A stretch of DNA of 64,000 nucleotides from Escarpia spicata (taxonomy: Eukaryota > Annelida > Polychaeta > Sabellida > Siboglinidae), in assembly GCA_963995525.1 (NCBI GenBank), contig OZ023209.1, positions 30,405,044-30,469,043 of the forward strand, written 5' to 3'. Each line of letters begins with the position of its first letter. The first letter of the stretch is position 1. Under the pieces are notes generated by a model. The model was not told where the DNA came from and made no database searches. It saw only the letters and a program-made list of their open reading frames with translations. Both the position numbers and the translations under genes were made by a program. This document shows positions 10,423 to 60,504 of the stretch, in pieces.

Positions 10423-10624
10423 TCAGTCCATCTTGATGTTGACGTAGATGTATCGGATGAACTTGAGGGAGGCGAAGAAGGCGACGGTGCCCAGCATGAG
10501 GAAGAAGACGTAGCACGTGAGGAGGGTGTAGCCGAAGAACTCGACCGTCTGCAGCATGCCCGACATGCTGGAGCGCTTGAAGTAGTAGAAGAGGGAGTAG
10601 AGGAATACAAAGAGACCCGTCGAC
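10423..10624 (-). CDS. TM9SF1: TM9SF1 exon 15 (last helices, KMD end)
   Basis: Residues 519-584 and TGA at 10425-10423. [39 protein letters not shown] and [12 protein letters not shown]. The final KMD fits the KXD/E retention signal of TM9 proteins. Its acceptor TTGTAG lies about 36 nt downstream of a SINE. Confidence 0.98.
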
Positions 10625-19600: not shown

Positions 19601-22600
19601 TGTCATTAACAAGGACCTGCAGTAGTCATCATTGCAGTAACGGGCTATTGAAGAGTTAGGGTGGAACTGTAGTGTTGAACAAATATGTGTCTGTCTCATA
19701 AAAGATAGCTATTGTTTGAGATTACTGCCACAAAATCAAATCAAATTCAAGTAGTTTTCATTTCCATTAAAATTCCACAATTTCCAATTCAATTACAAAT
19801 GCACCATTTCAGTTAGTTCTGTATTCAGTGGGATCAACTGTGTATTCCAGAAGGAATGCTTTTTCTAGTGCACTTTCGCTGACTATGACACTGAATGACG
19901 TCATTGCACATGTCAGGTAGATCGTAATTTGCCTCATCTCGATTGATTGGTGTTCCGGTCTTTCTGATCCATATGGCTTCTTTTACGTGTCTGATTCTTC
20001 GGTTGGATTCCTTGTCTCTATTTTTGCTCCCTCCCAGTCTATGTGTTTTGAGTCCAATCGAGATAAGGGAAATTATGAGCTACTTCACATATACAATAAC
20101 GTCATTCGGCATCATAGGTACTGAAGAAATTGGCGTGCAATGCCAACGAATGTTTCTACCAGGTAAAATTTGTTTGGATATGTAAAAATGAAATTTAAAA
20201 AGAACTACTTTATACCTGCAAACTCTCCCAGAAAATGCATTTAGGGTATATCTCCTGGTCTCCCAAAATACATAAAAATCTCCAACAGTACCCCTCCCCC
20301 TGTCTTCGAGACAGTGCGACAGCATGGGAGATGTGCCGAGACGAGCTGAACCGCTGAATTTCTGGCGAAAAATCTCCAACAGCAACCTCCCCCGTCTTCC
20401 GATGTCACCATCCCAGACAGAGTGATGAGACAGCATGATGCGTGCTGAACTGCTGATGAATCTCCCGGATTTCACCAAAATGTTAATGGGTATATTATTC
20501 TGAAGAATGTTCAGTAATCTGATCTAGATGTTGTATTTGGGGAAGACAGAGACAAGAGGGGCGGTGGTACTCACGGAAGGCCCACAGACAGCCGAGAAGG
20601 ATGACTGTCTCCCAGGGCAGGGCCTGGGTAGAGCCGTATGCCCATGCCACGCTGTTCACAAAACTCCACACGACAAAGAACGGGGCTGTAAACAGACGGT
20701 TGGATCAGACACAGTGGCAGTGTCTCCTGCTTCATGTAGGCGGCATTCACTTCTACTGATTACATCCAGGCTGACGTACAAAAGATGCACACTCCATATG
20801 CATATGGACAATGTGCTCTAAATGTTTCATCTACATATAGAAAGTTTATTTCATCCCATTGACATAATATCATTCTTCTTCTTCTTGGTTGTATACACAT
20901 AATATACACTGATAAACACAGATACACATATAATACACCATACGTATGCATATAGATCATTTATTAATAATAAATAAATCAAAATTTTTTCCAGATGGGG
21001 TCGATCACTCGTATTAAAACAAATGTCGCTATCATAGGAGCCACCCCATTTACATTAATAACAATTATTACATAGGTCCTTTTAACAACAATAATGACTA
21101 TCTCATGTGTGAACATGTGCCTGTATGTGAACCGTATATATGAACCTGTACATGTGTGAACGTGTGCCTGTGTACGAACCTATGCATGTGTGAACGTGTG
21201 TCTGTGTATGAACCTGTGCATGTGTGAACGTGTGCTTGTATATGAACCTGTACATGTGTGAACGTGTGCCTGTGTATGAACCTGTATGTGTGTGAACATG
21301 TGCCTGTGTATGAACCTGTACATGTGTGAATGTGTGCCTGTGTATGAACCTGTGCATGTGTGAATGTGTGCCTGTGTATGAACCTGTGCATGTGTGAATG
21401 TGTGCCTGTATATGAACCTGTACATGTGTGAACGTGTGCTTGTATATGAACCTGTACATGTGTGAACGTGTGCCTGTGTATGAACCTGTATGTGTGTGAA
21501 CATGTGCCTGTGTATGAACCTGTACATGTGTGAATGTGTGCCTGTGTATGAACCTGTGCATGTGTGACTGTGTATGAACCTGTACATGTGTGAATGTATG
21601 CCTGTATATGAACCTGTACATGTGTGAACATGTGCCTGTGTATGAACCTGTACATGTGTGAATGTGTGCCTGTATATGAACCTATGCATGTGTGAACGTG
21701 TGCCTGTGTATGAACCTGTGCATGTGTGAACGTTTGTTTGTATATGAACCTGTACATGTGTGAACGTGTGCCTGTGTATGAACCTGTATGTGTGTGAATG
21801 TGTGCCTGTGTATGAACCTGTGCATGTGTGAATGTGTGCCTGTATATGAACCTGTACATGTGTGAACGTGTGCCTGTGTATGAACCTGTATGTGTGTGAA
21901 CATGTGCCTGTGTATGAACCTGTACATGTGTGAATGTGTGCCTGTGTATGAACCTGTGCATGTGTGAATGTGTGCCTGTGTATAAACCTGTACATGTGTG
22001 AATGTATGCCTGTATATGAACCTGTACATGTGTGAACATGTGCCTGTGTATGAACCTGTACATGTGTGAATGTGTGCCTGTATATGAACCCATGTATGTG
22101 TGCCTGTGTATGAACCTGTACATGTGAGAATGTATGCCTGTATATGAACCTGTACATTGGTGAACATGTGCCTGTGTATGAACCTGTACATGTTTGAATG
22201 TGTGCCTGTATATGAACCTGTGAATGTGTGCCTTTGTATGAACCTGTACATGTGAGAATGTATGCCTGTATATGAACCTGTACATTGGTGAACATGTGCC
22301 TGTGTATGAACCTGTGCATGTGTGAATGTGTGCCTGTGTATGAACCTGTACATGTGTGAATGTATGCCTGTATATGAACCTGTACATGTGTGAACATGTG
22401 CCTGTGTATGAACCTGTACATGTATGAATATGTGCCTGTATATGAACCCATGCATGTGTGCCTGTGTACGAACCTGTACATGTGAGAATGTATGCCTGTA
22501 TATGAACCTGTACATTGGTGAACATGTGCCTGTGTATGAACCTGTACATGTTTGAATTGGTGCCTGTATATGAACCTGTGAATGTGTGCCTGTGTATGAA

Positions 22601-25600
22601 CCTGTGAATGTGTGCCTGTGTATGAACCTGTACATGTGTGAATGTATGCCTGTGTGTGTTATCTGTTTGTTTGTGTTGCCTGTACATTTTAGTGAAGGAG
22701 ACACCAGTTTTGTCACTAGGTGGCACTGAACGAACCTGCGAAGAGGGCAGATGCGAGGTTAATACACCACACCCAGTAGCTGCCCTGCATCTTGCGGTAC
22801 ATGCTGCTTGCCACGTAGCCCGCTATGCCTGCAACACACCACCACAAGTTGGGCCACAGTTCCCGAGGCAGTTTCGTCTGGTGTCAGACATCGATATTTG
22901 ACACTTCAGACCAATTCTGTATATATATATATAGTGATATCATCAAATCAATGTTTACAAACTGTTCTCTGAGGTGAGGAAGGGTGGGGGTTGGGGCCAG
23001 ATGAAAGTAATATTTTGTCTGATACCGGATATCGATATTCTGAGAAGTCAGAAGTCGCTTAGAAGTCATAGACTTACTGATTTGAAAAGAAAATGTTATT
23101 CACATTAATTAGTGGCATAACGTGACAGACAACGTTTACAAAGGCTACCCAATATATGACAGAAAATAAAATAAAAAACTACTGATTTACTTAAATATGT
23201 CAATTGGTTGTAATTGGACTTTCACAACAATTTTGTCATCGTCAATTCAAGTTCTCTCAGCAGCAGCGTTAAAGGCAACTCTGACCTGAACTAGAACTGA
23301 ACGAGACTTTGAGGTACCTTACAAGACGTGAATGAGGCTGTGTTTAATGAACCATGACAGTTGAGAGGTCACTTACATGACGTGAATGAGGCTGTGTTTA
23401 ATAAACCATGACGATCAAGAGGTAACTTACATGTCATGAATGAGGTTGTGTTTAATTAACCATGGCAATCAAGAGGTAACTTACATGACGTGAATGAGGC
23501 TATGTTTAATAACCCATGATGATCAAGAGGTAACTTACATGACATAAATGAGGTTGTGTTTAATGAACCATGACAATCAAGAGGTAACTTACATGACGTG
23601 AATGAGGCTGTGTTTAATAAACCATGACGATCAAGAGGTAACTTACATGACATGAATGAGGCTGTGTTTAATGAACCATGACAGTGGAGAGGTCACTTAC
23701 ATGACGTGAATGAGGCTGTGTTTAATAAACCATGACGATCAAGAGGTACCTTACATGACGTGAATGAGGCTGTGTTTAATGAACCATGACAGTTGAGAGG
23801 TCACTTACATGACGTGGATGAGGCTGTGTTTAATGAACCATGACAGTTGAGAGTTCACTTACATGACATGGATGAGGCTGTGTTTAATGAACCATGACAG
23901 CTGAGAGGTCACTTACATGACGTGAATGAGGCTGTTTTTAATAAACCATGACGATCAAGAGGTACCTTACATGACATGAATGAGGCTGTGTTTAATAAAC
24001 CATGACGATCAAGAGGTAACTTACAATGACATGAATGAGGCTGTGTTTAATAAACCATGACGATCAAGAGGTAACTTACATGACATGAATGAGGCTGTGT
24101 TTAATAAACCATGACGATCAAGAGGTAACTTACATGACATGAATGAGGCTGTGTTTAATGAACCATGACAGTTGAGAGGTCACTTATATTACATGAGGTT
24201 GTGTTTAATGAACCATGACGATCAAGAGGTAACTTACATAACATGAATGAGGCTATATTTAATAAACCATGACGATCAAGAGGTAACTTACATGACATGA
24301 ATGAGGCTGTGTTTAATAAACCATAACGATCAAGAGGTAACTTACATGACATGAATGAGGCTGTGTTTAATAAACCATGACGATCAAGAGGTAACTTACA
24401 TGACATGAATGAGGCTGTGTTTAATAAACCATGACGATCAAGAGGTACCTTACATGACATGAATGAGGCTGTGTTTAATAAACCATGACGATCAAGAGGT
24501 ACCTTACATGACATGAATGAGGCTGTGTTTAATAAACCATGACGATCAAGAGGTAACTTACATGACATGAATGAGGCTGTGTTTAATAAACCATGACGAT
24601 CAAGAGGTACCTTACATGACATGAATGAGGCTGTGTTTAATAAACCATGACGATCAAGAGGTAACTTACATGACATGAATGAGGCTGTGTTTAATAAACC
24701 ATGACGATCAAGAGGTACCTTACATGACATGAATGAGGCTGTGTTTAATAAACCATGACGATCAAGAGGTAACTTACATGACATGAATGAGGCTGTGTTT
24801 AATAAACCATGACGATCAAGAGATAACTTACATGACATGAATGAGGCTGTGTTTAATAAACCATGACGATCAAGAGGTAACTTACATGACATGAATGAGG
24901 CTGTGTTTAATAAACCATGACGATCAAGAGGTAACTTACATGACATGAATGAGGCTGTGTTTAATACACCATGACGATCAAGAGGTAACTTACATGACAT
25001 GAATGTGGCTGTGTTTAATAAACCATGACGATCAAGAGGTAACTTACATGACATGAATGAGGCTGTGTTTAATAAACCATGACGATCAAGAGGTAACTTA
25101 CATGACATGAATGAGGCTGTGTTTAATAAACCATGACGATCAAGAGGTAACTTACATGACATGAATGAGGCTGTGTTTAATACACCATGACGATCAAGAG
25201 GTAACTTACATGACATGAATGAGGCTGTGTTTAATAAACCATGACGATCAAGAGGTAACTTACATGACATGAATGAGGCTGTGTTTAATAAACCATGACG
25301 ATCAAGAGGTAACTTACATGACATGAATGAGGCTGTGTTTAATGAACCATGACAGTTGAGAGGTCACTTATATTACGTGAATGAGGTTGTGTTTAATGAA
25401 CCGTGATGATCGAGAGGTAACTAACATGACATGAATGAGGCTGTGTTTAATAAACCATGACGATCAAAAGGTAACTGACATTACATGAAAGAGGTTGTGT
25501 TTAATGAACCATGACAATCAAGAGGTAACTTACATTACGTGAATGGGGTTGTGTTTAATGAACCGTGATGATCGAGAGGTACCTTACATGACATGAATGA

Positions 25601-28600
25601 GGCTGTGTTTAATGAACCATGACAGTGGAGAGGTCACTTACATGACATGAATGAGGCTGTGTTTAATAAACCATGACGATCAAGAGGTACCTTACATGAC
25701 ATGAATGAGGCTGTGTTTAATAAACCATGACGATCAAGAGGTAACTTACATGACATGAATGAGGCTGTGTTTAATAAACCATGACGATCAAGAGGTACCT
25801 TACATGACATGAATGAGGCTGTGTTTAATAAACCATGACGATCAAGAGGTAACTTACATGACATGAATGAGGCTGTGTTTAATAAACCATGACGATCAAG
25901 AGATAACTTACATGACATGAATGAGGCTGTGTTTAATAAACCATGACGATCAAGAGGTAACTTACATGACATGAATGAGGCTGTGTTTAATAAACCATGA
26001 CGATCAAGAGGTAACTTACATGACATGAATGAGGCTGTGTTTAATACACCATGACGATCAAGAGGTAACTTACATGACATGAATGTGGCTGTGTTTAATA
26101 AACCATGACGATCAAGAGGTAACTTACATGACATGAATGAGGCTGTGTTTAATAAACCATGACGATCAAGAGGTAACTTACATGACATGAATGAGGCTGT
26201 GTTTAATAAACCATGACGATCAAGAGGTAACTTACATGACATGAATGAGGCTGTGTTTAATACACCATGACGATCAAGAGGTAACTTACATGACATGAAT
26301 GAGGCTGTGTTTAATAAACCATGACGATCAAGAGGTAACTTACATGACATGAATGAGGCTGTGTTTAATAAACCATGACGATCAAGAGGTAACTTACATG
26401 ACATGAATGAGGCTGTGTTTAATAAACCATGACGATCAAGAGGTAACTTACATGACATGAATGAGGCTGTGTTTAATAAACCATGACGATCAAGAGGTAA
26501 CTTACATGACATGAATGAGGCTGTGTTTAATAAACCATGACGATCAAGAGGTACCTTACATGACATGAATGAGGCTGTGTTTAATGAACCATGACAGTTG
26601 AGAGGTCACTTACATGACGTGAATGAGGCTGTGTTTAATGAACCATGACAGTTGAGAGGTCACTTACATGACCTGGATGAGGCTGTGTTTAATGAACCAT
26701 GACAGTTGAGAGTTCACTTACATGACATGCATGAGGCTGTGTTTAATGAACCATGACAGCTGAGAGGTCACTTACATGACGTGAATGAGGCTGTTTTTAA
26801 TAAACCATGACGATCAAGAGGTACCTTACATGACATGAATGAGGCTGTGTTTAATAAACCATGACGATCAAGAGGTAACTTACAATGACATGAATGAGGC
26901 TGTGTTTAATAAACCATGACGATCAAGAGGTAACTTACATGACATGAATGAGGCTGTGTTTAATAAACCATGACGATCAAGAGGTAACTTACATGACATG
27001 AATGAGGCTGTGTTTAATAAACCATGACGATCAAGAGGTACCTTACATGACATGAATGAGGCTGTGTTTAATAAACCATGACGATCAAGAGGTAACTTAC
27101 ATGACATGAATGAGGCTGTGTTTAATAAACCATGACGATCAAGAGGTACCTTACATGACATGAATGAGGCTGTGTTTAATAAACCATGACGATCAAGAGG
27201 TAACTTACATGACATGAATGAGGCTGTGTTTAATAAACCATGATGATCAAGAGGTACCTTACATGACATGAATGAGGCTGTGTTTAATAAACCATGACGA
27301 TCAAGAGGTAACTTACATGACATGAATGAGGCTGTGTTTAATAAACCATGACGATCAAGAGGTAACTTACATGACATGAATGAGGCTGTGTTTAATAAAC
27401 CATGACGATCAAGAGGTAACTTACATGACATGAATGAGGCTGTGTTTAATAAACCATGACGATCAAGAGGTAACTTACATGACATGAATGAGGCTGTGTT
27501 TAATACACCATGACGATTAAGAGGTAACTTACATGACATGAATGTGGCTGTGTTTAATAAACCATGACGATCAAGAGGTAACTTACATGACATGAATGAG
27601 GCTGTGTTTAATAAACCATGACGATCAAGAGGTAACTTACATGACATGAATGAGGCTGTGTTTAATAAACCATGACGATCAAGAGGTAACTTACATGACA
27701 TGAATGAGGCTGTGTTTAATAAACCATGACGATCAAGAGGTAACTTACATGACATGAATGAGGCTGTGTTTAATAAACCATGACGATCAAGAGGTAACTT
27801 ACATGACATGAATGAGGCTGTGTTTAATAAACCATGACGATCAAGAGGTAACTTACATGACATGAATGAGGCTGTGTTTAATAAACCATGACGATCAAGA
27901 GGTAACTTACATGACATGAATGAGGCTGTGTTTAATAAACCATGACGATCAAGAGGTAACTTACATGACATGAATGAGGCTGTGTTTAATAAACCATGAC
28001 GATCAAGAGGTAACTTACATGACATGAATGAGGCTGTGTTTAATGAACCATGACAGTTGAGAGGTCACTTATATTACGTGAATGAGGTTGTGTTTAATGA
28101 ACTGTGATGATCGAGAGGTAACTAACATGACGTGAACGTTGTTGTGTTTAATGAACCATGATGATCAAGAGGTAACTTTCATTACGTGAACAAGGTTGTG
28201 TTTAATGAACCATGACGATCAAAAGGTAACTTACATTACATGAAAGAGGTTGTATTTAATTAACCATGACGATCAAAAGGTAACTTACATTACGTGAAAG
28301 AGGTTGTGTTTAATGAACCATGACGATCAAGAGGTAAATTACATGACGTGAATGAGGTTGTGTTTATTAAACTGTGACGATCGAGAGGTAACTTACATGA
28401 CGTGACTGAGGATGTGTTTAATGAACTGTGACGATCAAAAGGTAACTTACATTACGTGAAAGAGGTTGTGTTTAATGAACCATGACAGTTGAGAGGTCAC
28501 TTACATGACGTGAATGAGGCTGTGTTTAATAAACCATGACGATCAAGAGGTACCTTACATGACATGAATGAGGCTGTGTTTAATAAACCATGACGATCAA

Positions 28601-31600
28601 GAGGTAACTTACATGACATGAATGAGGCTGTGTTTAATAAACCATGATGATCAAGAGGTACCTTACATGACATGAATGAGGCTGTGTTTAATAAACCATG
28701 ACGATCAAGAGGTAACTTACATGACATGAATGAGGCTGTGTTTAATAAACCATGACGATCAAGAGGTAACTTACATGACATGAATGAGGCTGTGTTTAAT
28801 AAACCATGACGATCAAGAGGTAACTTACATGACATGAATGAGGCTGTGTTTAATAAACCATGACGATCAAGAGGTAACTTACATGACATGAATGAGGCTG
28901 TGTTTAATACACCATGACGATTAAGAGGTAACTTACATGACATGAATGTGGCTGTGTTTAATAAACCATGACGATCAAGAGGTAACTTACATGACATGAA
29001 TGAGGCTGTGTTTAATAAACCATGACGATCAAGAGGTAACTTACATGACATGAATGAGGCTGTGTTTAATAAACCATGACGATCAAGAGGTAACTTACAT
29101 GACATGAATGAGGATGTGTTTAATAAACCATGACGATCAAGAGGTAACTTACATGACATGAATGAGGCTGTGTTTAATAAACCATGACGATCAAGAGGTA
29201 CCTTACATGACATGAATGAGGCTGTGTTTAATAAACCATGACGATCAAGAGGTACCTTACATGACATGAATGAGGCTGTGTTTAATAAACCATGACGATC
29301 AAGAGGTAACTTACATGACATGAATGAGGCTGTGTTTAATAAACCATGACGATCAAGAGGTACCTTACATGACATGAATGAGGCTGTGTTTAATAAACCA
29401 TGACGATCAAGAGGTACCTTACATGACATGAATGAGGCTGTGTTTAATAAACCATGACGATCAAGAGGTAACTTACATGACATGAATGAGGCTGTGTTTA
29501 ATAAACCATGACGATCAAGAGGTACCTTACATGACATGAATGAGGCTGTGTTTAATAAACCATGACGATCAAGAGGTAACTTACATGACATGAATGAGGC
29601 TGTGTTTAATAAACCATGACGATCAAGAGGTACCTTACATGACATGAATGAGGCTGTGTTTAATAAACCATGACGATCAAGAGATAACTTACATGACATG
29701 AATGAGGCTGTGTTTAATAAACCATGACGATCAAGAGGTAACTTACATGACATGAATGAGGCTGTGTTTAATAAACCATGACGATCAAGAGGTAACTTAC
29801 ATGACATGAATGAGGCTGTGTTTAATACACCATGACGATCAAGAGGTAACTTACATGACATGAATGTGGCTGTGTTTAATAAACCATGACGATCAAGAGG
29901 TAACTTACATGACATGAATGAGGCTGTGTTTAATAAACCATGACGATCAAGAGGTAACTTACATGACATGAATGAGGCTGTGTTTAATGAACCATGACAG
30001 TTGAGAGGTAACTTACATGACATGAATGAGGCTGTGTTTAATACACCATGACGATCAAGAGGTAACTTACATGACATGAATGAGGCTGTGTTTAATAAAC
30101 CATGACGATCAAGAGGTAACTTACATGACATGAATGAGGCTGTGTTTAATAAACCATGACGATCAAGAGGTACCTTACATGACATGAATGAGGCTGTGTT
30201 TAATAAACCATGACGATCAAGAGGTAACTTACATGACATGAATGAGGCTGTGTTTAATAAACCATGACGATCAAGAGATAACTTACATGACATGAATGAG
30301 GCTGTGTTTAATAAACCATGACGATCAAGAGGTAACTTACATGACATGAATGAGGCTGTGTTTAATAAACCATGACGATCAAGAGGTAACTTACATGACA
30401 TGAATGAGGCTGTGTTTAATACACCATGACGATCAAGAGGTAACTTACATGACATGAATGTGGCTGTGTTTAATAAACCATGACGATCAAGAGGTAACTT
30501 ACATGACATGAATGAGGCTGTGTTTAATAAACCATGACGATCAAGAGGTAACTTACATGACATGAATGAGGCTGTGTTTAATAAACCATGACGATCAAGA
30601 GGTAACTTACATGACATGAATGAGGCTGTGTTTAATACACCATGACGATCAAGAGGTAACTTACATGACATGAATGAGGCTGTGTTTAATAAACCATGAC
30701 GATCAAGAGGTAACTTACATGACATGAATGAGGCTGTGTTTAATAAACCATGACGATCAAGAGGTAACTTACATGACATGAATGAGGCTGTGTTTAATGA
30801 ACCATGACAGTTGAGAGGTCACTTATATTACGTGAATGAGGTTGTGTTTAATGAACCGTGATGATCGAGAGGTAACTAACATGACATGAATGAGGCTGTG
30901 TTTAATAAACCATGACGATCAAAAGGTAACTGACATTACATGAAAGAGGTTGTGTTTAATGAACCATGACAATCAAGAGGTAACTTACATTACGTGAATG
31001 GGGTTGTGTTTAATGAACCGTGATGATCGAGAGGTACCTTACATGACATGAATGAGGCTGTGTTTAATGAACCATGACAGTGGAGAGGTCACTTACATGA
31101 CATGAATGAGGCTGTGTTTAATAAACCATGACGATCAAGAGGTACCTTACATGACATGAATGAGGCTGTGTTTAATAAACCATGACGATCAAGAGGTAAC
31201 TTACATGACATGAATGAGGCTGTGTTTAATAAACCATGACGATCAAGAGGTACCTTACATGACATGAATGAGGCTGTGTTTAATAAACCATGATGATCAA
31301 GAGGTAACTTACATGACATGAATGAGGCTGTGTTTAATAAACCATGACGATCAAGAGATAACTTACATGACATGAATGAGGCTGTGTTTAATAAACCATG
31401 ACGATCAAGAGGTAACTTACATGACATGAATGAGGCTGTGTTTAATAAACCATGACGATCAAGAGGTAACTTACATGACATGAATGAGGCTGTGTTTAAT
31501 GAACCATGACAGTTGAGAGGTCACTTACATGACGTGAATGAGGCTGTGTTTAATGAACCATGACAGTTGAGAGGTCACTTACATGACCTGGATGAGGCTG

Positions 31601-34600
31601 TGTTTAATGAACCATGACAGTTGAGAGTTCACTTACATGACATGCATGAGGCTGTGTTTAATGAACCATGACAGCTGAGAGGTCACTTACATGACGTGAA
31701 TGAGGCTGTTTTTAATAAACCATGACGATCAAGAGGTACCTTACATGACATGAATGAGGCTGTGTTTAATAAACCATAACGATCAAGAGGTAACTTACAA
31801 TGACATGAATGAGGCTGTGTTTAATAAACCATGACGATCAAGAGGTAACTTACATGACATGAATGAGGCTGTGTTTAATAAACCATGACGATCAAGAGGT
31901 AACTTACATGACATGAATGAGGCTGTGTTTAATAAACCATGATGATCAAGAGGTACCTTACATGACATGAATGAGGCTGTGTTTAATAAACCATGACGAT
32001 CAAGAGGTAACTTACATGACATGAATGAGGCTGTGTTTAATAAACCATGACGATCAAGAGGTACCTTACATGACATGAATGAGGCTGTGTTTAATAAACC
32101 ATGACGATCAAGAGGTAACTTACATGACATGAATGAGGCTGTGTTTAATAAAACATGATGATCAAGAGGTACCTTACATGACATGAATGAGGCTGTGTTT
32201 AATAAACCATGACGATCAAGAGGTAACTTACATGACATGAATGAGGCTGTGTTTAATAAACCATGACGATCAAGAGGTAACTTACATGACATGAATGAGG
32301 CTGTGTTTAATAAACCATGACGATCAAGAGGTAACTTACAATGACATGAATGAGGCTGTGTTTAATAAACCATGATGATCAAGAGGTACCTTACATGACA
32401 TGAATGAGGCTGTGTTTAATAAACCATGACGATCAAGAGGTAACTTACATGACATGAATGAGGCTGTGTTTAATAAACCATGACGATCAAGAGGTACCTT
32501 ACATGACATGAATGAGGCTGTGTTTAATAAACCATGACGATCAAGAGGTAACTTACATGACATGAATGAGGCTGTGTTTAATAAACCATGATGATCAAGA
32601 GGTACCTTACATGACATGAATGAGGCTGTGTTTAATAAACCATGACGATCAAGAGGTAACTTACATGACATGAATGAGGCTGTGTTTAATAAACCATGAC
32701 GATCAAGAGGTAACTTACATGACATGAATGAGGCTGTGTTTAATAAACCATGACGATCAAGAGGTAACTTACATGACATGAATGAGGCTGTGTTTAATAA
32801 ACCATGACGATCAAGAGGTAACTTACATGACATGAATGAGGCTGTGTTTAATACACCATGACGATTAAGAGGTAACTTACATGACATGAATGTGGCTGTG
32901 TTTAATAAACCATGACGATCAAGAGGTAACTTACATGACATGAATGAGGCTGTGTTTAATAAACCATGACGATCAAGAGGTAACTTACATGACATGAATG
33001 AGGCTGTGTTTAATAAACCATGACGATCAAGAGGTAACTTACATGACATGAATGAGGATGTGTTTAATAAACCATGACGATCAAGAGGTAACTTACATGA
33101 CATGAATGAGGCTGTGTTTAATGAACCATGACAGTTGAGAGGTCACTTATATTACGTGAATGAGGTTGTGTTTAATGAACTGTGATGATCGAGAGGTAAC
33201 TAACATGACGTGAACGTTGTTGTGTTTAATGAACCATGATGATCAAGAGGTAACTTTCATTACGTGAACAAGGTTGTGTTTAATGAACCATGACGATCAA
33301 AAGGTAACTTACATTACATGAAAGAGGTTGTATTTAATTAACCATGACGATCAAAAGGTAACTTACATTACGTGAAAGAGGTTGTGTTTAATGAACCATG
33401 ACGATCAAGAGGTAAATTACATGACGTGAATGAGGTTGTGTTTATTAAACTGTGACGATCGAGAGGTAACTTACATGACGTGACTGAGGATGTGTTTAAT
33501 GAACTGTGACGATCAAAAGGTAACTTACATTACGTGAAAGAGGTTGTGTTTAATGAACCATGACGATCAAAAGGTAACTTACATGACATGAATGAGGCTG
33601 TGTTTAATAAACCATGACGATCAAGAGGTAACTTACATGACATGAATGAGGCTGTGTTTAATGAACCATGACAGTTGAGAGGTCACTTATATTACGTGAA
33701 TGAGGTTGTGTTTAATGAACCGTGATGATCGAGAGGTAACTAACATGACATGAATGAGGCTGTGTTTAATAAACCATGACGATCAAAAGGTAACTGACAT
33801 TACATGAAAGAGGTTGTGTTTAATGAACCATGACAATCAAGAGGTAACTTACATTACGTGAATGGGGTTGTGTTTAATGAACCGTGATGATCGAGAGGTA
33901 CCTTACATGACATGAATGAGGCTGTGTTTAATGAACCATGACAGTGGAGAGGTCACTTACATGACATGAATGAGGCTGTGTTTAATAAACCATGACGATC
34001 AAGAGGTACCTTACATGACATGAATGAGGCTGTGTTTAATAAACCATGACGATCAAGAGGTAACTTACATGACATGAATGAGGCTGTGTTTAATAAACCA
34101 TGACGATCAAGAGGTACCTTACATGACATGAATGAGGCTGTGTTTAATAAACCATGACGATCAAGAGGTAACTTACATGACATGAATGAGGCTGTGTTTA
34201 ATAAACCATGACGATCAAGAGGTAACTTACATGACATGAATGAGGCTGTGTTTAATAAACCATGACGATCAAGAGATAACTTACATGACATGAATGAGGC
34301 TGTGTTTAATAAACCATGACGATCAAGAGGTAACTTACATGACATGAATGAGGCTGTGTTTAATAAACCATGACGATCAAGAGGTAACTTACATGACATG
34401 AATGAGGCTGTGTTTAATGAACCATGACAGTTGAGAGGTCACTTACATGACGTGAATGAGGCTGTGTTTAATGAACCATGACAGTTGAGAGGTCACTTAC
34501 ATGACCTGGATGAGGCTGTGTTTAATGAACCATGACAGTTGAGAGTTCACTTACATGACATGCATGAGGCTGTGTTTAATGAACCATGACAGCTGAGAGG

Positions 34601-37600
34601 TCACTTACATGACGTGAATGAGGCTGTTTTTAATAAACCATGACGATCAAGAGGTACCTTACATGACATGAATGAGGCTGTGTTTAATAAACCATAACGA
34701 TCAAGAGGTAACTTACAATGACATGAATGAGGCTGTGTTTAATAAACCATGACGATCAAGAGGTAACTTACATGACATGAATGAGGCTGTGTTTAATAAA
34801 CCATGACGATCAAGAGGTAACTTACATGACATGAATGAGGCTGTGTTTAATAAACCATGATGATCAAGAGGTACCTTACATGACATGAATGAGGCTGTGT
34901 TTAATAAACCATGACGATCAAGAGGTAACTTACATGACATGAATGAGGCTGTGTTTAATAAACCATGACGATCAAGAGGTACCTTACATGACATGAATGA
35001 GGCTGTGTTTAATAAACCATGACGATCAAGAGGTAACTTACATGACATGAATGAGGCTGTGTTTAATAAAACATGATGATCAAGAGGTACCTTACATGAC
35101 ATGAATGAGGCTGTGTTTAATAAACCATGACGATCAAGAGGTAACTTACATGACATGAATGAGGCTGTGTTTAATAAACCATGACGATCAAGAGGTAACT
35201 TACATGACATGAATGAGGCTGTGTTTAATAAACCATGACGATCAAGAGGTAACTTACAATGACATGAATGAGGCTGTGTTTAATAAACCATGATGATCAA
35301 GAGGTACCTTACATGACATGAATGAGGCTGTGTTTAATAAACCATGACGATCAAGAGGTAACTTACATGACATGAATGAGGCTGTGTTTAATAAACCATG
35401 ACGATCAAGAGGTACCTTACATGACATGAATGAGGCTGTGTTTAATAAACCATGACGATCAAGAGGTAACTTACATGACATGAATGAGGCTGTGTTTAAT
35501 AAACCATGATGATCAAGAGGTACCTTACATGACATGAATGAGGCTGTGTTTAATAAACCATGACGATCAAGAGGTAACTTACATGACATGAATGAGGCTG
35601 TGTTTAATAAACCATGACGATCAAGAGGTAACTTACATGACATGAATGAGGCTGTGTTTAATAAACCATGACGATCAAGAGGTAACTTACATGACATGAA
35701 TGAGGCTGTGTTTAATAAACCATGACGATCAAGAGGTAACTTACATGACATGAATGAGGCTGTGTTTAATACACCATGACGATTAAGAGGTAACTTACAT
35801 GACATGAATGTGGCTGTGTTTAATAAACCATGACGATCAAGAGGTAACTTACATGACATGAATGAGGCTGTGTTTAATAAACCATGACGATCAAGAGGTA
35901 ACTTACATGACATGAATGAGGCTGTGTTTAATAAACCATGACGATCAAGAGGTAACTTACATGACATGAATGAGGATGTGTTTAATAAACCATGACGATC
36001 AAGAGGTAACTTACATGACATGAATGAGGCTGTGTTAAATAAACCATGACGATCAAGAGGTAACTTACATGACATGAATGAGGCTGTGTTTAATAAACCA
36101 TGACGATCAAGAGGTAACTTACATGACATGAATGAGGCTGTGTTTAATAAACCATGACGATCAAGAGGTAACTTACATGACATGAATGAGGCTGTGTTTA
36201 ATGAACCATGACAGTTGAGAGGTCACTTATATTACGTGAATGAGGTTGTGTTTAATGAACTGTGATGATCGAGAGGTAACTAACATGACGTGAACGTTGT
36301 TGTGTTTAATGAACCATGATGATCAAGAGGTAACTTTCATTACGTGAACAAGGTTGTGTTTAATGAACCATGACGATCAAAAGGTAACTTACATTACATG
36401 AAAGAGGTTGTATTTAATTAACCATGACGATCAAAAGGTAACTTACATTACGTGAAAGAGGTTGTGTTTAATGAACCATGACGATCAAGAGGTAAATTAC
36501 ATGACGTGAATGAGGTTGTGTTTATTAAACTGTGACGATCGAGAGGTAACTTACATGACGTGACTGAGGATGTGTTTAATGAACTGTGACGATCAAAAGG
36601 TAACTTACATTACGTGAAAGAGGTTGTGTTTAATGAACCATGACGATCAAAAGGTAACTTACATGACATGAATGAGGCTGTGTTTAATAAACCATGACGA
36701 TCAAGAGGTAACTTACATGACATGAATGAGGCTGTGTTTAATGAACCATGACAGTTGAGAGGTCACTTATATTACGTGAATGAGGTTGTGTTTAATGAAC
36801 CGTGATGATCGAGAGGTAACTAACATGACATGAATGAGGCTGTGTTTAATAAACCATGACGATCAAAAGGTAACTGACATTACATGAAAGAGGTTGTGTT
36901 TAATGAACCATGACAATCAAGAGGTAACTTACATTACGTGAATGGGGTTGTGTTTAATGAACCGTGATGATCGAGAGGTACCTTACATGACATGAATGAG
37001 GCTGTGTTTAATGAACCATGACAGTGGAGAGGTCACTTACATGACATGAATGAGGCTGTGTTTAATAAACCATGACGATCAAGAGGTACCTTACATGACA
37101 TGAATGAGGCTGTGTTTAATAAACCATGACGATCAAGAGGTAACTTACATGACATGAATGAGGCTGTGTTTAATAAACCATGACGATCAAGAGGTACCTT
37201 ACATGACATGAATGAGGCTGTGTTTAATAAACCATGACGATCAAGAGGTAATTTACATGACATGAATGAGGCTGTGTTTAATAAACCATGACGATCAAGA
37301 GATAACTTACATGACATGAATGAGGCTGTGTTTAATAAACCATGACGATCAAGAGGTAACTTACATGACATGAATGAGGCTGTGTTTAATAAACCATGAC
37401 GATCAAGAGGTAACTTACATGACATGAATGAGGCTGTGTTTAATACACCATGACGATCAAGAGGTAACTTACATGACATGAATGTGGCTGTGTTTAATAA
37501 ACCATGACGATCAAGAGGTAACTTACATGACATGAATGAGGCTGTGTTTAATAAACCATGACGATCAAGAGGTAACTTACATGACATGAATGAGGCTGTG

Positions 37601-40600
37601 TTTAATAAACCATGACGATCAAGAGGTAACTTACATGACATGAATGAGGCTGTGTTTAATACACCATGACGATCAAGAGGTAACTTACATGACATGAATG
37701 AGGCTGTGTTTAATAAACCATGACGATCAAGAGGTAACTTACATGACATGAATGAGGCTGTGTTTAATAAACCATGACGATCAAGAGGTAACTTACATGA
37801 CATGAATGAGGCTGTGTTTAATAAACCATGACGATCAAGAGGTAACTTACATGACATGAATGAGGCTGTGTTTAATAAACCATGACGATCAAGAGGTAAC
37901 TTACATGACATGAATGAGGCTGTGTTTAATAAACCATGACGATCAAGAGGTACCTTACATGACATGAATGAGGCTGTGTTTAATGAACCATGACAGTTGA
38001 GAGGTCACTTACATGACGTGAATGAGGCTGTGTTTAATGAACCATGACAGTTGAGAGGTCACTTACATGACCTGGATGAGGCTGTGTTTAATGAACCATG
38101 ACAGTTGAGAGTTCACTTACATGACATGCATGAGGCTGTGTTTAATGAACCATGACAGCTGAGAGGTCACTTACATGACGTGAATGAGGCTGTTTTTAAT
38201 AAACCATGACGATCAAGAGGTACCTTACATGACATGAATGAGGCTGTGTTTAATAAACCATAACGATCAAGAGGTAACTTACAATGACATGAATGAGGCT
38301 GTGTTTAATAAACCATGACGATCAAGAGGTAAATTACATGACATGAATGAGGCTGTGTTTAATAAACCATGACGATCAAGAGGTAACTTACATGACATGA
38401 ATGAGGCTGTGTTTAATAAACCATGATGATCAAGAGGTACCTTACATGACATGAATGAGGCTGTGTTTAATAAACCATGACGATCAAGAGGTAACTTACA
38501 TGACATGAATGAGGCTGTGTTTAATAAACCATGACGATCAAGAGGTACCTTACATGACATGAATGAGGCTGTGTTTAATAAACCATGACGATCAAGAGGT
38601 AACTTACATGACATGAATGAGGCTGTGTTTAATAAAACATGATGATCAAGAGGTACCTTACATGACATGAATGAGGCTGTGTTTAATAAACCATGACGAT
38701 CAAGAGGTAACTTACATGACATGAATGAGGTTGTGTTTAATAAACCATGACGATCAAGAGGTAACTTACATGACATGAATGAGGCTGTGTTTAATAAACC
38801 ATGACGATCAAGAGGTAACTTACAATGACATGAATGAGGCTGTGTTTAATGAACCATGACAGTTGAGAGTTCACTTACATGACATGCATGAGGCTGTGTT
38901 TAATGAACCATGACAGTTGAGAGGTCACTTACATGACCTGGATGAGGCTGTGTTTAATGAACCATGACAGTTGAGAGTTCACTTACATGACATGCATGAG
39001 GCTGTGTTTAATGAACCATGACAGCTGAGAGGTCACTTACATGACGTGAATGAGGCTGTTTTTAATAAACCATGACGATCAAGAGGTACCTTACATGACA
39101 TGAATGAGGCTGTGTTTAATAAACCATGACGATCAAGAGGTAACTTACAATGACATGAATGAGGCTGTGTTTAATAAACCATGACGATCAAGAGGTAACT
39201 TACATGACATGAATGAGGCTGTGTTTAATAAACCATGACGATCAAGAGGTAACTTACATGACATGAATGAGGCTGTGTTTAATAAACCATGATGATCAAG
39301 AGGTACCTTACATGACATGAATGAGGCTGTGTTTAATAAACCATGACGATCAAGAGGTAACTTACATGACATGAATGAGGCTGTGTTTAATAAACCATGA
39401 CGATCAAGAGGTACCTTACATGACATGAATGAGGCTGTGTTTAATAAACCATGACGATCAAGAGGTAACTTACATGACATGAATGAGGCTGTGTTTAATA
39501 AACCATGATGATCAAGAGGTACCTTACATGACATGAATGAGGCTGTGTTTAATAAACCATGACGATCAAGAGGTAACTTACATGACATGAATGAGGCTGT
39601 GTTTAATAAACCATGACGATCAAGAGGTAACTTACATGACATGAATGAGGCTGTGTTTAATAAACCATGACGATCAAGAGGTAACTTACATGACATGAAT
39701 GAGGCTGTGTTTAATAAACCATGACGATCAAGAGGTAACTTACATGACATGAATGAGGCTGTGTTTAATACACCATGACGATTAAGAGGTAACTTACATG
39801 ACATGAATGTGGCTGTGTTTAATAAACCATGACGATCAAGAGGTAACTTACATGACATGAATGAGGCTGTGTTTAATAAACCATGACGATCAAGAGGTAA
39901 CTTACATGACATGAATGAGGCTGTGTTTAATAAACCATGACGATCAAGAGGTAACTTACATGACATGAATGAGGATGTGTTTAATAAACCATGACGATCA
40001 AGAGGTAACTTACATGACATGAATGAGGCTGTGTTAAATAAACCATGACGATCAAGAGGTAACTTACATGACATGAATGAGGCTGTGTTTAATAAACCAT
40101 GACGATCAAGAGGTAACTTACATGACATGAATGAGGCTGTGTTTAATAAACCATGACGATCAAGAGGTAACTTACATGACATGAATGAGGCTGTGTTTAA
40201 TGAACCATGACAGTTGAGAGGTCACTTATATTACGTGAATGAGGTTGTGTTTAATGAACTGTGATGATCGAGAGGTAACTAACATGACGTGAACGTTGTT
40301 GTGTTTAATGAACCATGATGATCAAGAGGTAACTTTCATTACGTGAACAAGGTTGTGTTTAATGAACCATGACGATCAAAAGGTAACTTACATTACATGA
40401 AAGAGGTTGTATTTAATTAACCATGACGATCAAAAGGTAACTTACATTACGTGAAAGAGGTTGTGTTTAATGAACCATGACGATCAAGAGGTAAATTACA
40501 TGACGTGAATGAGGTTGTGTTTATTAAACTGTGACGATCGAGAGGTAACTTACATGACGTGACTGAGGATGTGTTTAATGAACTGTGACGATCAAAAGGT

Positions 40601-43600
40601 AACTTACATTACGTGAAAGAGGTTGTGTTTAATGAACCATGACGATCAAAAGGTAACTTACATTACATGAAAGAGGTTGTGTTTAATGAACCATGACGAT
40701 CAAAAGGTAACTTACATTACATGAAAGAGGTTGTGTTTAATGAACCATGACGATCAAGAGGTAAATTACATGACGTGAATGAGGTTGTGTTTATTAAACT
40801 GTGACGATCGAGAGGTAACTTACATGACGTGACTGAGGATGTGTTTAATGAACTGTGACGATCGAGGGGTAACTTACATGATGTGAGCGCATAGAGCAGA
40901 ATGGAGGCGGTGTTTATTGAACCGTGACGATGCACGTTGAACATTCCAAGCATGGCCATGAGGAGGATTCCTGTCGCGGTCGCCAGGAACTGAGAGCCAA
41001 CACCTGCAGCAGAATACATGTGAAGGTTTTTAGGGCAAAACGCGATAAACGCCATTTTTGAAATTTTCCCCAAACAAGGACAAAACATTTCTTTAAACAT
41101 GTGTCGAGCTAGAATGCGACTTAATTTATACAAAAAAGCATTAAACAACATGCAAAAAGTGCCTTTGTTTTCAAAAGTGCAATCCGTCTGTTTTATAATG
41201 CGATATATCCATTTTCAGCCAATCAGCACCATTTTGCGGCACATGCATTTATGACAGAACACAACAACTCATTTGATAAATGCATCAAATTTTTATTATG
41301 GCAAAATGGGACAGTCCGGCCAGATCTCTTTGGGGCCAGCTGTGACAGCCTGAGAACAGGATGCAAGACCAGGATATTTCACATGACCGGACGTGATCCT
41401 GGGCTAGCACATGCAACTACGCGGAGTGACGGCGCACGCTGTATAAATATACAGCGTTTTTATAACAAAATGATGTAATATCACATTTTTACGTAACAAA
41501 TATGCTACAAATATTTGATACTTTGCTACCATTCTCTATGATTTTGGATTCTTAATATACACCAACTTCAGGTACGTACAAGTTTTTTTATTTAAACTTT
41601 GAGGATGAAACACAAAGTGACATTTTCCCCAAACCAAGAAAATGGATATATGAAACACTTTATGTATAGATCCCATTCTCACAGAGCAACCACGATGTAG
41701 TGAGTTTCACCTACATGCCATTTTATGAGAATCACATACAACTAGGTTACACCCGACCATGGAGCAACAACATTTCCTGGTAAAGTGAACGTAAAGCCAT
41801 AACACCGCCAGGGGCTTAGCCTGAGACCAGTCTGCCCGTCTTCAAGACTGGCAGATGACTGGCCAAGACAGGTAATTACAACTGATAAGACTGGTGGAAT
41901 TTAGAGGGGGCCAGCTGGCCATTAAATTAACTAATAGTTCCAAGTCTAGGGGCCAACATTAATGACTATCATTGGCACAACAGGCAGTGAAACAAATCTA
42001 ATGGATCAGTATTAATAAATAGCTCAATTGACACTGGTTTGTCTTTGGAAAACTAAACTGGCCAATGACTGTGAATGGCTTCCACCCAAGCAGTTCGCGT
42101 GCTAAAAAGCACATTTTTGATAAGTTCAAGACAGACAAAAATATTTCTGGCTAAGGGCCTTATTAGCGCCCTCTGGGGAATGGCTGATCAGGTTAACGTA
42201 AGTAAATAACTCTAAATAGCTACTGTTGTGTATGTCAAGTAATGACTCGCTACTTTGTAGATCAGAGGCCAGTGGTCCAAGAAAGCGGCAAGTGGATCTG
42301 AGCACTTCAGAGGAGACACTGCCAAACGCCGTCAAAGTTAGCTCATCATTATACAGATGTATTAATCACTGACAAATTGTAAACACTTGAAATAGGATAA
42401 CATAATTGCATCTACAAATGATGAAATGAGGCAACTGGTATTATGTTTTACATTTGAATGGTCTAGTAATTCTCACATTTGCAACGTAGGATGACATGCA
42501 AAGGCGCTAGTGAACGTGTATCAAGTTCAGCTGATAGCCCCACCACACAACAACGGTTCACGTACCAAGGATGGCGCAAAAGAAGGCTTTGTAGGGCGGG
42601 AAGCGGAAGACATCCGTATGTATAATCTTCCACCCATTCTCTTCATCATCCATTAAATCTTCATCGTCGTCGTTACTCTTGGCAAAGTCATTTTTCAACA
42701 CCCGGGTCTACGGTGAACAGACACTCGCACAGTAAAGGTAAACAGCAGAAACAACTCATCAAGGTCATCAAGACAATGATGGACCACAGTGCACACTCAG
42801 AGATCCGAACAACTTATTAACCCTTTAGACCTAGAATGACTGAAAGTGGCCAGACACCCATTTCCTTGAGCAGCCACAAATGGCTACAAACATTTTCTAC
42901 TTTGACAACGTGTGGAGGTGGTGCCACCATCTGGATAGTTATGTAACTTATATCACTAGTTTCTTTAGTGTATCTGCTGTGCGCGGGGGTATTTATGATA
43001 TAGCTCTGTATTGGAAGTTTTTAAATGAGCGCTGTTTGGAAATATCAACTGACAAGAGTTCATAGATATACACTACAGTCTTTGCAAACACACAACTTGC
43101 AATGTTAGGAAAGGAAGCACAACAAAGTTAAATTCAAAAGACTTGGTGAACCCATTAACATGGTGATTTTGGGTGCGTGCTGCAAGGATTTGGAGCAGCT
43201 TTCATAAAATGACGTAAAGTCTAAAGGGTTAAGATAAAATAAAGCCACTTACAAAGATAATGTTAACAAATAATACAATGTTAACTTACTAAAATAATAG
43301 TAATTTACCATGATAATACTAACTTACTAAAGTAATGTTGACATGTCAAGATTATGTTTACTTATCAATTTAAAGATGACAAACCCAATAAGATAATGAA
43401 AACTCATCAAAATAATATAAATTTACCAACATAATAGTAACTCACCTTTACAATAATAACAAAACAAATAAGATATTAATAATAATATGTACATTTATAA
43501 AGCACCTGGTAATTTAGTAATGTTAACTTACAAACAAAAATAATGCTAACTCACCATTATAATGATCACAAAGCCAATAAGAAGGAAGACCAGAACCATG

Positions 43601-46600
43601 GAGTTTATTATGGACAGCCAGTGGATCTGAAAGGTAAATATCATTCCATGTATCAGATTAACCAAAATTCATCAATGCCAATAATTATAAAATATATTAA
43701 ATTATGTATGTAAATGAGATAAGCTCTTAAAGGTTAAATAATCAAGAGTTTAGAAACAGTAATGACATCAGTAAATAAAATAAAAAAATCCCCATGTCTG
43801 ATTAGGGATGGTTATGAACATGCCTAATATTACGTTTCACCTTCACATATAGTGAATTGGCAGAAAAATATAACAAAATGTTCCTAAATATTTCTCTATT
43901 GACTTTGTTCAAGAAACATGTCTTAATAATTTTTTTTACAAAAACAAATACAAACTTTAATTCATACAGGTATACCAACACAAAATGCGGCAGATTGAAG
44001 ACAAGGAAGTTGACATAACGTGACACACCTCAAGTGTTTTGGGGAAGAAGCTGCTATCGTGAACTCGCTTTCCACGGTCCGAGAATTTTGTTCTGCAATA
44101 GAAAGCCAACTTCGATGATTGTTATACTGCTAGTAATCAGGTGAAAAGATTCAAGCGCCAGACATTACAATGATCATCTTTAAAGGGAACCAGTCTGTTG
44201 CTTTAACCTGAATTAGCCAGTGTAGTAATTTGTAACAGGAAGTCTGGTTGAATGTGGGAAATTAGGGAATTGTTGAACATCAAAGGGTACCGTGATTAAC
44301 TCAGCCCATCTCTGCATTATTGTCAATAAAGCTTCTTTTGAAACTGGAATTTTTTTTTCCATTTGAACATGATCCTGGACGTATCGTCCAAATTGCGAAC
44401 GCTGTTCCGGGCATACTTTCTAAACAAAATTTGGTTGAATTAATAAATGATAAATTAGTAAATGAAAAGTTAGGAACAGACCGCCTCCCTTTCTACCAAC
44501 TTGACAAGTCAGACACGTTGCAGTTTTCGACTTTGTAGGACACCAAACACACACCAGGTGGCAACACGGACATATTAGCAAGCCAGTTTCTGACACGACC
44601 CAAGTTAGATGTCGTATAATGACAATCTTGATATAATTGTATTGGAACCAGATTTATCGGATTTTGACCGACTTACAGAAAACTGTATTTGTATTACTGT
44701 AATGACTGTATGTATTTGTATTACTGTAATGTATGTATGTATTTGTATTACTGTAATGGCTGTATGCATTTGTATTACTGTAATGCCTGCATGTATTTGT
44801 ATTACTGCTATGAATGTACGTGTTTATATTACTGTAACGACTGTGTGTATTTGTATTAATGTAATGACTGTATGCATTTGTATTATTGCAATGATTGTAT
44901 GCAATTGTATTACTGTAATGATTGTATGTATTTGCATTATTGTAATGACTGTATGTATTTGTATTACTGAATGTAACTGGACACTATGTTTTCAGACACA
45001 CTATAAATCTACAGAAATTATTATTTTTTGTATTGCATGTTTTCGGACACGTAATATTTGTCTGTCTGAATACATACAGTACATAGGGACTACGTTTTTG
45101 GACACCAACACATTTTTTTGTACTGTATGATTAAATGTGTTCCGACACAATTTTAAGTGAAAACTATTACTTTAACACGACAAATGAATCTGTTTACAGC
45201 ATTGTCGCTTGTAAAAATACACTCGGCATGCATCTTCATTCACTGATCATTACGAACAGCCCCCCCTCATAGTCACCAACACCTCCATCAGGATTCTAAA
45301 AATGCTGTGGTCGAGCAGTTAGAATGCTCGTGCTGGCTGGGCAGTGGTTCAGTACTGATTCAGCCAATGTGTTGAACCTTGGGCAATTTTGTTCACCCTA
45401 CGTTGCCCGTGTCTTTCGGAAGATACACCCTAAGCCGTTGGTCCCTTGTGTACCGTGTCTGTGCCAGGGGAAGTAAAACAATTCGTGCAGGGAAATGGAA
45501 AACATGTCGTGGACTCACTGAGCGGAGGTCTCATTCTCACAAAACTCTATGACAGAATCATCAACAACGTTACATTAGTTGAATAACTGGAAGAAGTATG
45601 CGTGTGTTTCACTCACGTTGTCTCCGTCCACTTGACGCTGTACGTGAAGGTCACCTTAAAGGGGGCACTGACCCCCTCCAGGCTCACGGGAGACTTGTTC
45701 TTGGTTGACACATTGGCATAGATGATCTGCAAATAACCAGCCACACTCTCAGTGATGCCGTCTGTCCGTGTTCATCAGTAAACTAAATTCAACACATGGG
45801 TTGCACATCAGTAAAAACGCTGTGAACATTTTATGTAATATTATTTAAAAGGAGGCAGACTGTTCATAGCTTTTCATTTATTAATATAACATTCTTAAGA
45901 TTATACTGTATTGAAGGCACACTGCCTGCCAAATTGTGTTTAGTAAGTGTCAACACTCAAGGTTTCCATAGGTGGAGAACTTACAGTTTTTTGTGTCATC
46001 GATTTTATTTAAGAAAACTTAGAATTCCAGGTTTTTCCATGCCATTTAGAAAATTCTTGGCTTTCAAGGCCTTGATTTTTAACTAATGAAACTCCATGCT
46101 ATTCAAGGATTTCCCTGCCCCGTGTGAACCTGTTGTAGGATTGTTTGTCTGTAGTTTGGTCGTATCATCAGCAGTATTACTTTTCATAATCAGTATCTAG
46201 AAAAATATTCAACTGTTCTAAATTTATTATAATAAACGTTTTTGGGTCTGAACGTACATTGTTTGATGCCCACCAAGCAGGTCCAAGTTTAGAATTGTAG
46301 TTTCCAAACAGGACCAAGCATGCTACATTGTACGAGGACCATTTGTATAGTGGTCCTTCCTGGACAAGCTTAGTCACATGGTCTTTCCTCTTCGGTGAAT
46401 TCTAGCAGTCAAATTGAAGGGTGGTCTTTTGCAGAAACTGGTAATAAAGCAAAATTGTGCTTTCTGGCAAGAAATCAGAGTGATATTTGACCCATCACAA
46501 CAAACCAGGTATTAACCCTCTCGTGGTCAGAACGCCCGAATCAACCCGAGTATGCCTCACGGCCAGAACGCCCGAATACAGGGGCACATTTAAACTGGTA

Positions 46601-59968: not shown

Positions 59969-60504
59969 ATTTGACGCATACATAATCTCGTCCTTTCTCG
60001 CGAAATAATATTTCATATTACATGCTGCATACGAAATTAATATAAATAGTACGAAATATGCTTCATGGTAATTTTATGCAAACTCGGACTGTCGTGATTT
60101 AAAATTACGAACTCATTAAAATTAAGGTCGTAAAATTAAATGATCTTAAATGTGTCCGTGAGCTGGCGCCATCTCGTGTTAACTCAATCGGAATATTTCT
60201 ACAAAATTCATTATCCCAGCTACGCGATGAGGCGCCACCATTTGTCCGCTCAGCCTAAGGTTTGTATAAATTTTCCATTTTATGTCATACGATTTAAATT
60301 CCAGCGACTTTTCAGGCGGTATACCCTTGTGTGAGTATTGATGCAATACACAGTGGAGATATGAGACAAAATGTGGCTACCAGTATTCTTGACACCTTTA
60401 AGGCAAGGGTGCCACAAATCTAAATCTAGATCCTCCATATAATTAGATTGATCTTATGTTAATTATTAACTTACTTATTTAATTAAATTTATGATTTATT
60501 TATT
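59969..60504. promoter_or_regulatory. TM9SF1 5' UTR and probable promoter
   Basis: Between the TM9SF1 start codon and the retrotransposon LTR. No TATA box at a credible distance was identified. GGCGCCATCTCG at about 60,163 and GCGCCACCATTTG at about 60,231 resemble the YY1-type GCCAT motif common in animal promoters. On the plus strand ATGAGGCGCC at about 60,228 runs for 11 codons to a possible donor AAG|GTTTGT, a weak hint of a divergent first exon. These are inferences. Confidence 0.35.

What the first reader, a model, noticed from the sequence alone, without database searches (positions are those of the whole stretch)
23310..40877. Ladder of ~325 copied 5' splice sites seeded by the exon 10/intron 10 boundary
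Seen directly: the 54-bp unit is a copy of the end of TM9SF1 exon 10 (minus 15 nt) fused to the first 14 nt of intron 10. The array begins exactly at the real donor and each unit ends in CAT|GTAAGT or a close variant. The real donor is therefore only the 5'-most of hundreds of near-identical candidates. Units nearest the exon are the most exon-like, which fits outward growth from the boundary. Known: GTAAGT pairs with the 5' end of U1 snRNA. Inferred: the nascent transcript is a very large U1-binding platform, and splicing must pick the first rung.
Basis: partly seen in the sequence, partly recalled or inferred. Interest (0 to 1): 0.9.

Follow-up and report, generated by a model that had tools for sequence, protein, structure and literature searches.

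The report
Ladder of 325 copied splice sites
In what is likely a deep-sea tubeworm gene (TM9SF1), the last part of one exon together with its splice signal is repeated about 325 times through the next intron, and two other exons of the same gene show a smaller and a decayed version; splicing would have to pick the first of hundreds of near-equal signals, a kind of repeat already known with fewer copies in amphioxus, chicken and human genes.

Summary
The 54-bp array (325 units, 23311-40881, minus-strand gene) is 40 nt of TM9SF1 exon 10 (15 nt missing) plus the first 14 nt of intron 10. The exon match beats all 5,000 shuffles, and outside that exon nothing in the window comes near it. 312 of 325 units keep a GT; 210 share the real donor's nine bases. 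It is not alone: a 38-bp array (14701-16154) copies the exon 14 end almost perfectly, and intron 8 holds a decayed copy of the exon 8 end. So 3 of 14 donors, and 0 of 14 acceptors, beat 300 shuffles for copies in their own intron. The kind is known: amphioxus 'mirages', chicken 'exon stuttering', human F7 and CBS boundary repeats. New here: an annelid (likely a vestimentiferan), the copy number, low GC, and three donors in one gene. First-donor use is likely but untested; genome-wide spread could not be checked (genome search did not complete).

The parts
10423..59983 (-). TM9SF1 gene, start codon to stop codon, 15 exons (script names e0-e14 = exons 1-15), 14 GT-AG introns
   Evidence: exon table; Pfam EMP70 for two of three exon pieces tested; closest protein Ridgeia piscesae P0001
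40878..41003 (-). exon 10 (e9), seed of the large ladder; real donor CAT|GTAAGT at 40877
23311..40881 (-). 54-bp ladder: 325 units (40 nt exon end + 14 nt intron start), about 97% of intron 10
40230..40877 (-). exon-near units 1-12: consensus differs from that of the other units at 4 of 54 positions, not closer to the exon
34213..36036 (-). 1,824-bp block inside the ladder, identical to 31295-33118: internal block duplication
31295..33118 (-). second copy of the 1,824-bp block
22736..22828 (-). exon 11 (e10), acceptor side of intron 10
16131..16322 (-). exon 14 (e13), seed of the second ladder; donor CGG|GTAAGT at 16130
14701..16154 (-). 38-bp ladder: 24 nt exon end + 14 nt intron start, 38 unit starts counting the real donor (31 GTAAGT, 5 ATAAGT, 1 GTAATT, 1 GTAAAT)
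43555..43626 (-). exon 8 (e7), donor ATG|GTGAGT at 43554
43428..43473 (-). decayed intronic copy of the exon 8 end plus donor (37 of 46 identical), donor copy at 43445
43225..43548 (-). degenerate 19-bp donor-like repeats at the start of intron 8 (7 GTRART sites, shuffles 0.6)
   Evidence: TRF row 43282-43336

Best explanation
The array is a tandem expansion of the exon 10/intron 10 boundary of TM9SF1 (40 nt of exon plus 14 nt of intron, 325 units), and it is likely tolerated because splicing is predicted to use the most upstream donor, so that every copy stays inside the intron. Shown: the make-up of the unit, the geometry (exon, donor, units, then a partial unit of intron start running into ordinary intron), two more donor-seeded cases in the same gene, and kilobase-scale identical blocks inside the array. 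Inferred: a first duplication across the donor left exon and donor intact and put the copy in the intron; unequal exchange or slippage then multiplied the copies. The direction, exon to array, is inferred from the conservation of the exon's protein sequence across animals. Inferred by analogy with human F7 intron 7: a 5'-to-3' scan picks rung one. What a slip would cost can be read off: donors 2 and 3 add 18 or 36 in-frame codons, any donor from the fourth on adds a stop; in intron 14 the second donor gives a stop at once.
For: Exon match: 0 of 5,000 shuffles as good, absent elsewhere in the window. Three of 14 donors beat all 300 shuffles for copies in their own intron (scores 47, 48, 90 against shuffle maxima 34, 27, 27; next best exon 11, matched by 12 of 300), 0 of 14 acceptors do. 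38-bp units match exon 14 at 22-24 of 24 positions. Internal exact blocks of 1,824, 1,406, 1,228, 1,113 and 1,009 bp. First-donor product fits Ridgeia TM9SF1 without a gap, and 0 of the 120 listed homologues has an insertion within 6 residues of that junction. Same geometry in amphioxus, chicken, F7 and CBS.
Against: No RNA data, so rung choice is unproven; the homologues may lack the array. Presence at other loci is untested (13 unanswered genome-search runs). By the chicken screen's cut-off the exon 10 ladder would not count (254 hits, best 28.2 bits, cut-off 42.1) and exon 8 gives no hit. The exon 8 case is old and weak. Copy number rests on one assembly.
Confidence: 0.77

Rival explanations
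1. The ladder is kept for a function: hundreds of U1 sites on the nascent RNA would shield this long intron from premature polyadenylation (telescripting) or tune its splicing. Each unit joins a polyA-like hexamer to a donor shortly downstream.
For: 323 of 325 units carry A(A/T)TAAA in sense (318 ATTAAA and 5 AATAAA in the array); 281 have the next GTAAG exactly 20 nt after it; other introns of the gene have 1.5 AATAAA and 0.5 ATTAAA per kb. Donor-like U1 sites are about three times denser than in the rest of the minus strand.
Against: Donor bases are not better conserved than the rest of the unit (rank 9 of 54 windows); pairing per rung is weak and the antisense strand scores as densely; the hexamer is inherited from exon codons; the 38-bp unit has no such hexamer (sequence).
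Confidence: 0.1
2. Inner rungs are used: donors 2 and 3 make protein isoforms with 18 or 36 extra residues, or later rungs feed nonsense-mediated decay to set the transcript level.
For: 54 is a multiple of 3; donors 2 and 3 keep the frame open; the inner donors are as good as the real one.
Against: 0 of 120 listed homologues has an insertion there; the third donor is GTAATT; the peptide has no match among the proteins searched (E 0.001); the insert would fall in a membrane region (inference).
Confidence: 0.06
3. The array is an unrelated satellite and its exon likeness is chance or later convergence.
For: The exon lacks perfect identity (about 31-32 of 40 positions) and 15 nt are missing; the genome could not be searched.
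Against: 0 of 5,000 shuffles; the array starts at that exon's donor; two other donors of the gene show the same.
Confidence: 0.03
4. The copy number is an assembly artefact.
For: Exact blocks of 1.0 to 1.8 kb recur in the array; read data are not at hand.
Against: 53 distinct unit types in a structured order; some copies exist whatever their exact number, and the second ladder is separate.
Confidence: 0.04

Closest known systems
Amphioxus 'mirages' (Adh3, globins BflGb6 and BflGb9, TnC, PGBD5)
   Same: Minisatellite-like tandem duplications that span an exon-intron boundary and copy its splice signal; reported not to disturb splicing (PMC3087553 and PMC3902484, passages)
   Different: There both boundaries are hit and units are 10-160 bp with few copies where given (6 and 3 in BflGb6); here donors only, 38 and 325 units, an annelid
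Chicken 'exon stuttering' (dot chromosomes)
   Same: Local tandem expansion of an exon edge with its splice site through the next intron (PMC12954441: abstract, section 7 part 2, sections 9 and 16, passages)
   Different: 1-44 copies, tied by the authors to GC-rich chromosomes; here 325 units at 38% GC; length variation between individuals not testable
Human F7 intron 7 37-bp repeats
   Same: Row of near-identical donors, the first being the real one; only the most upstream is normally used (PMC6627357, passage)
   Different: Far shorter row; first-donor use shown there, only inferred here
Human CBS 31-bp VNTR, c.1444_1467+7(16_21)
   Same: By its name the unit is 24 nt of exon plus 7 nt of intron (PMC2630376, passages)
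   Different: 16-21 copies, polymorphic in people; any effect on splicing is recalled, not read

Membership tests
Mirage (boundary-spanning minisatellite) | Tandem units spanning an exon-intron boundary | tested here: met
   54-bp ladder at exon 10 and 38-bp ladder at exon 14
Mirage (boundary-spanning minisatellite) | Splicing not disturbed | not testable with these tools
   no RNA data; the first-donor product fits the Ridgeia protein without gaps
Chicken exon stuttering | Intron heavily made of simple repeats | tested here: met
   array is 97% of intron 10
Chicken exon stuttering | Exon fragments in the adjacent intron above 42.1 bits in the authors' BLAST screen | tested here: inconclusive
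   my run (sense strand only, one mononucleotide shuffle): exon 14: 37 hits, 9 above 42.1; exon 10: 254 hits, best 28.2; exon 8: none; shuffled introns: 0 hits
Chicken exon stuttering | Length variation between individuals | not testable with these tools
   one sequence only
Chicken exon stuttering | GC-rich setting (association drawn by the authors) | tested here: not met
   GC 0.377 for the 54-bp array, 0.486 for the 38-bp array, 0.391 for the window
F7-type donor ladder | Only the most upstream donor used | not testable with these tools
   needs RNA
Recursive splice-site array | AG|GT juxtaposed in each unit | tested here: not met
   0 AGGTAAGT on the sense strand of the array

The most novel reading that the evidence does not exclude
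In this lineage 5' splice sites are the favoured seeds of intron growth: boundary duplications start at donors (three of 14 here, no acceptor) and are caught at a young stage (38 bp, 38 units), a huge one (54 bp, 325 units) and a decayed one (intron 8), so that donors build long introns. The largest ladder protects itself, since 281 units pair a polyA-like hexamer with a U1 site 20 nt downstream.
Probability: 0.2. Interest if true: 0.8.

Novelty: new member of a known kind. Interest (0 to 1): 0.6.

Why it matters
It carries a boundary-repeat phenomenon described in lancelets and birds to an annelid and to several times the highest copy number I read of, and at low GC, which speaks against high GC as a needed cause. 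With 210 rungs sharing the real donor's nine bases it is a natural test of 5' splice-site choice: position, not sequence, would have to tell rung one from the rest. Three stages in one gene would let intron growth by donor duplication be dated in related worms.

Tried and rejected
Exon-likeness gradient: two alignments, none found. Purifying selection on the donor bases: not seen. Recursive splicing: no AGGTAAGT in the array. Hairpins as driver: two or three units in a row, either strand, do not fold better than shuffles (z 0.55 to 2.38, the unstable side). Acceptor-side copies: the acceptor of exon 4 (e3) resembles its own intron, which holds a 21-bp array (score 45 against 25 in the best other intron; with other limits 33, reached by 1 of 300 shuffles), but its exon part alone does not match (14; 244 of 300), so I read it as a pyrimidine-tract likeness. 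An amphioxus gene model (P0048) has 78 extra residues at the exon 14 junction; they do not look like copies of the exon end. Hmmscan of 16350-23311 with stops as X found no EMP70 although exons lie there. PDB search of three exon pieces joined: no hit. One array translation (window 31795-32361) against 5.8 billion proteins: none at E 0.001 among the 7,996 candidates scored. A 25-mer of the unit in viral contigs: 0 (not a fair test for an animal satellite).

Left open, post hoc: the three seeded donors are exactly the three of 14 that read GTRAGTTA; 1 in 364 if labels were random, but the motif was chosen after seeing them.
Full report
What is there. The gene on the minus strand is TM9SF1. Fifteen exons join in frame (59983 to 10423), 14 of 14 introns are GT-AG, and the 589-aa product is 95.2% identical, without gaps, to TM9SF1 of the vestimentiferan tubeworm Ridgeia piscesae; the next named relatives in the list are molluscs and the annelid Owenia at 77-80%. 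The window therefore likely comes from a related tubeworm; the species itself is not known. Script names e0-e14 equal exons 1-15; the finding's exon 10 is e9 (40878-41003).

The large ladder. TRF gives 325.3 copies of 54 bp at 23311-40881. Cutting at the donor, the real one counted first, gives 325 units (315 of 54 bp, 9 of 55, 1 of 50) and a partial unit. The unit is 14 nt of intron start and 40 nt of exon end with 15 nt missing. With the donor left out, unit 1 and the consensus match the exon better than any of 5,000 dinucleotide shuffles; the ends of the other 13 exons tested score at most 17.4, and nothing in the window outside the array and that exon scores above 23.8 against 39. A test on the last 30 exon bases alone is negative, because the missing 15 nt fall there. 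312 of 325 units keep GT (303 in register, 9 shifted by one base), 210 share CAT|GTAAGT. The array takes up about 97% of the 18,049-bp intron. At its far end it stops after a unit's intron part and runs into ordinary intron, as expected of a tandem duplication across the donor.

It is not alone. The 38-bp array at 14701-16154 runs from the exon 14 donor: 24 nt of exon and 14 nt of intron. The 28 pieces cut as single 38-mers match the exon at 22-24 of 24 positions; of 38 unit starts 31 are GTAAGT and 5 ATAAGT. In intron 8, a 46-bp stretch (43428-43473) matches the exon 8 end plus donor at 37 of 46, and 324 bp at the intron's start hold seven donor-like sites against 0.6 in shuffles, with a 19-bp period (0 of 2,000 shuffles for each). 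Testing 14 donors and 14 acceptors against their own intron, three donors beat all 300 shuffles (exons 8, 10, 14; the next best, exon 11, is matched by 12 of 300) and no acceptor does; the nearest, that of exon 4, is matched by 1 of 300 and only through its intronic side.

How it grew. Exon-likeness does not fall with distance. The 325 units fall into 53 types; five block pairs of 1.0 to 1.8 kb are identical, with spacings of about 54, 57, 74, 101 and 211 units, and an eight-unit run that begins at unit 6 recurs three more times deep in the array. Block duplication inside the array fits better than steady outward growth. Units 1-12 have a consensus of their own (4 of 54 positions differ), much as edge units of amphioxus mirages escape homogenisation (PMC3087553, passages).

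What it means for splicing. Nothing here shows which rung is used. By U1 duplex energy 210 of 325 rungs pair at least as well as the real donor, which is weak (-5.5 kcal/mol); the exon 14 donor is strong (-11.4), and 30 of its 38 unit starts share its 11 bases. Using donor 2 or 3 of intron 10 would add 18 or 36 codons in frame, any later one a stop; in intron 14 the second donor gives a stop at once, and in intron 8 the donor copy does too. The gap-free fit to Ridgeia and the lack of an insertion at this junction in the 120 listed homologues (of 1,898 matches) fit first-donor use in relatives, but those genes may lack the array. In human F7 only the most upstream of a row of 37-bp repeats is normally used, ascribed to oriented scanning (PMC6627357, passage; the original paper was not held). 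I infer the same here. A U1-protection role is possible: 281 units carry a polyA-like hexamer 20 nt before the next GTAAG, and U1 is known to protect transcripts from premature polyadenylation (PMC5499120, start of abstract in a listing). But donors show no special conservation and antisense sites are as dense, so I rate it low.

What is known. Boundary-spanning minisatellites are known as mirages in amphioxus (PMC3087553 and PMC3902484, passages), as exon stuttering in chicken (PMC12954441: abstract, part 2 of section 7, sections 9 and 16, passages), as a 16-21 copy repeat in human CBS (PMC2630376, passages) and in F7. Human tandem repeats at exon-intron boundaries can also yield new introns (PMC2812944, passages). 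The chicken paper reports 1-44 copies in areas of 112 to 23,555 bp and links the process to high GC. Its BLAST screen, run here on the sense strand with one shuffled control, finds exon 14 (9 of 37 hits above its cut-off), sees exon 10 254 times but always below the cut-off, and misses exon 8; shuffled introns give no hit. My searches in the held library showed no annelid case in their listings; the library lacks most subscription papers. The passages I saw of the tubeworm genome paper (PMC9921365, 12 of 16 places) do not mention such arrays.

Verdict. It is a new member of a known kind, striking for copy number, phylum, low GC and three donor-seeded cases in one gene. Open: genome-wide spread (genome search did not answer in 13 tries), relatives, and RNA.

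Noticed in passing
window 14701-16154: Second donor-seeded ladder (38 bp, 38 unit starts) at the exon 14 donor of the same gene, almost identical to the exon end.
   Followed up: yes
window 43225-43554: Decayed donor-like repeats and a 37/46 copy of the exon 8 end at the start of intron 8.
   Followed up: yes
window 49434-49826: 21-bp array in the intron before exon 4; the acceptor region of exon 4 resembles its own intron, apparently through the pyrimidine tract and not the exon.
   Followed up: partly
donors at 43554, 40877, 16130: The three donors with copies are exactly the three of 14 that read GTRAGTTA; pattern picked after the fact.
   Followed up: partly
window 23311-40881, minus strand: 323 of 325 units carry a polyA-like A(A/T)TAAA hexamer; in 281 the next GTAAG lies 20 nt after it.
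   Followed up: partly
window 21139-22655, 17974-18904, 11239-11610, 44684-44973: Further tandem arrays in introns of the same gene (units 34/68, 84, 14 and 27 bp) that the donor and acceptor tests did not tie to an exon boundary.
   Followed up: partly
window 60891-62705, minus strand: Retrotransposon polyprotein piece with integrase domains and a weak RNase H-like match upstream of the gene.
   Followed up: no
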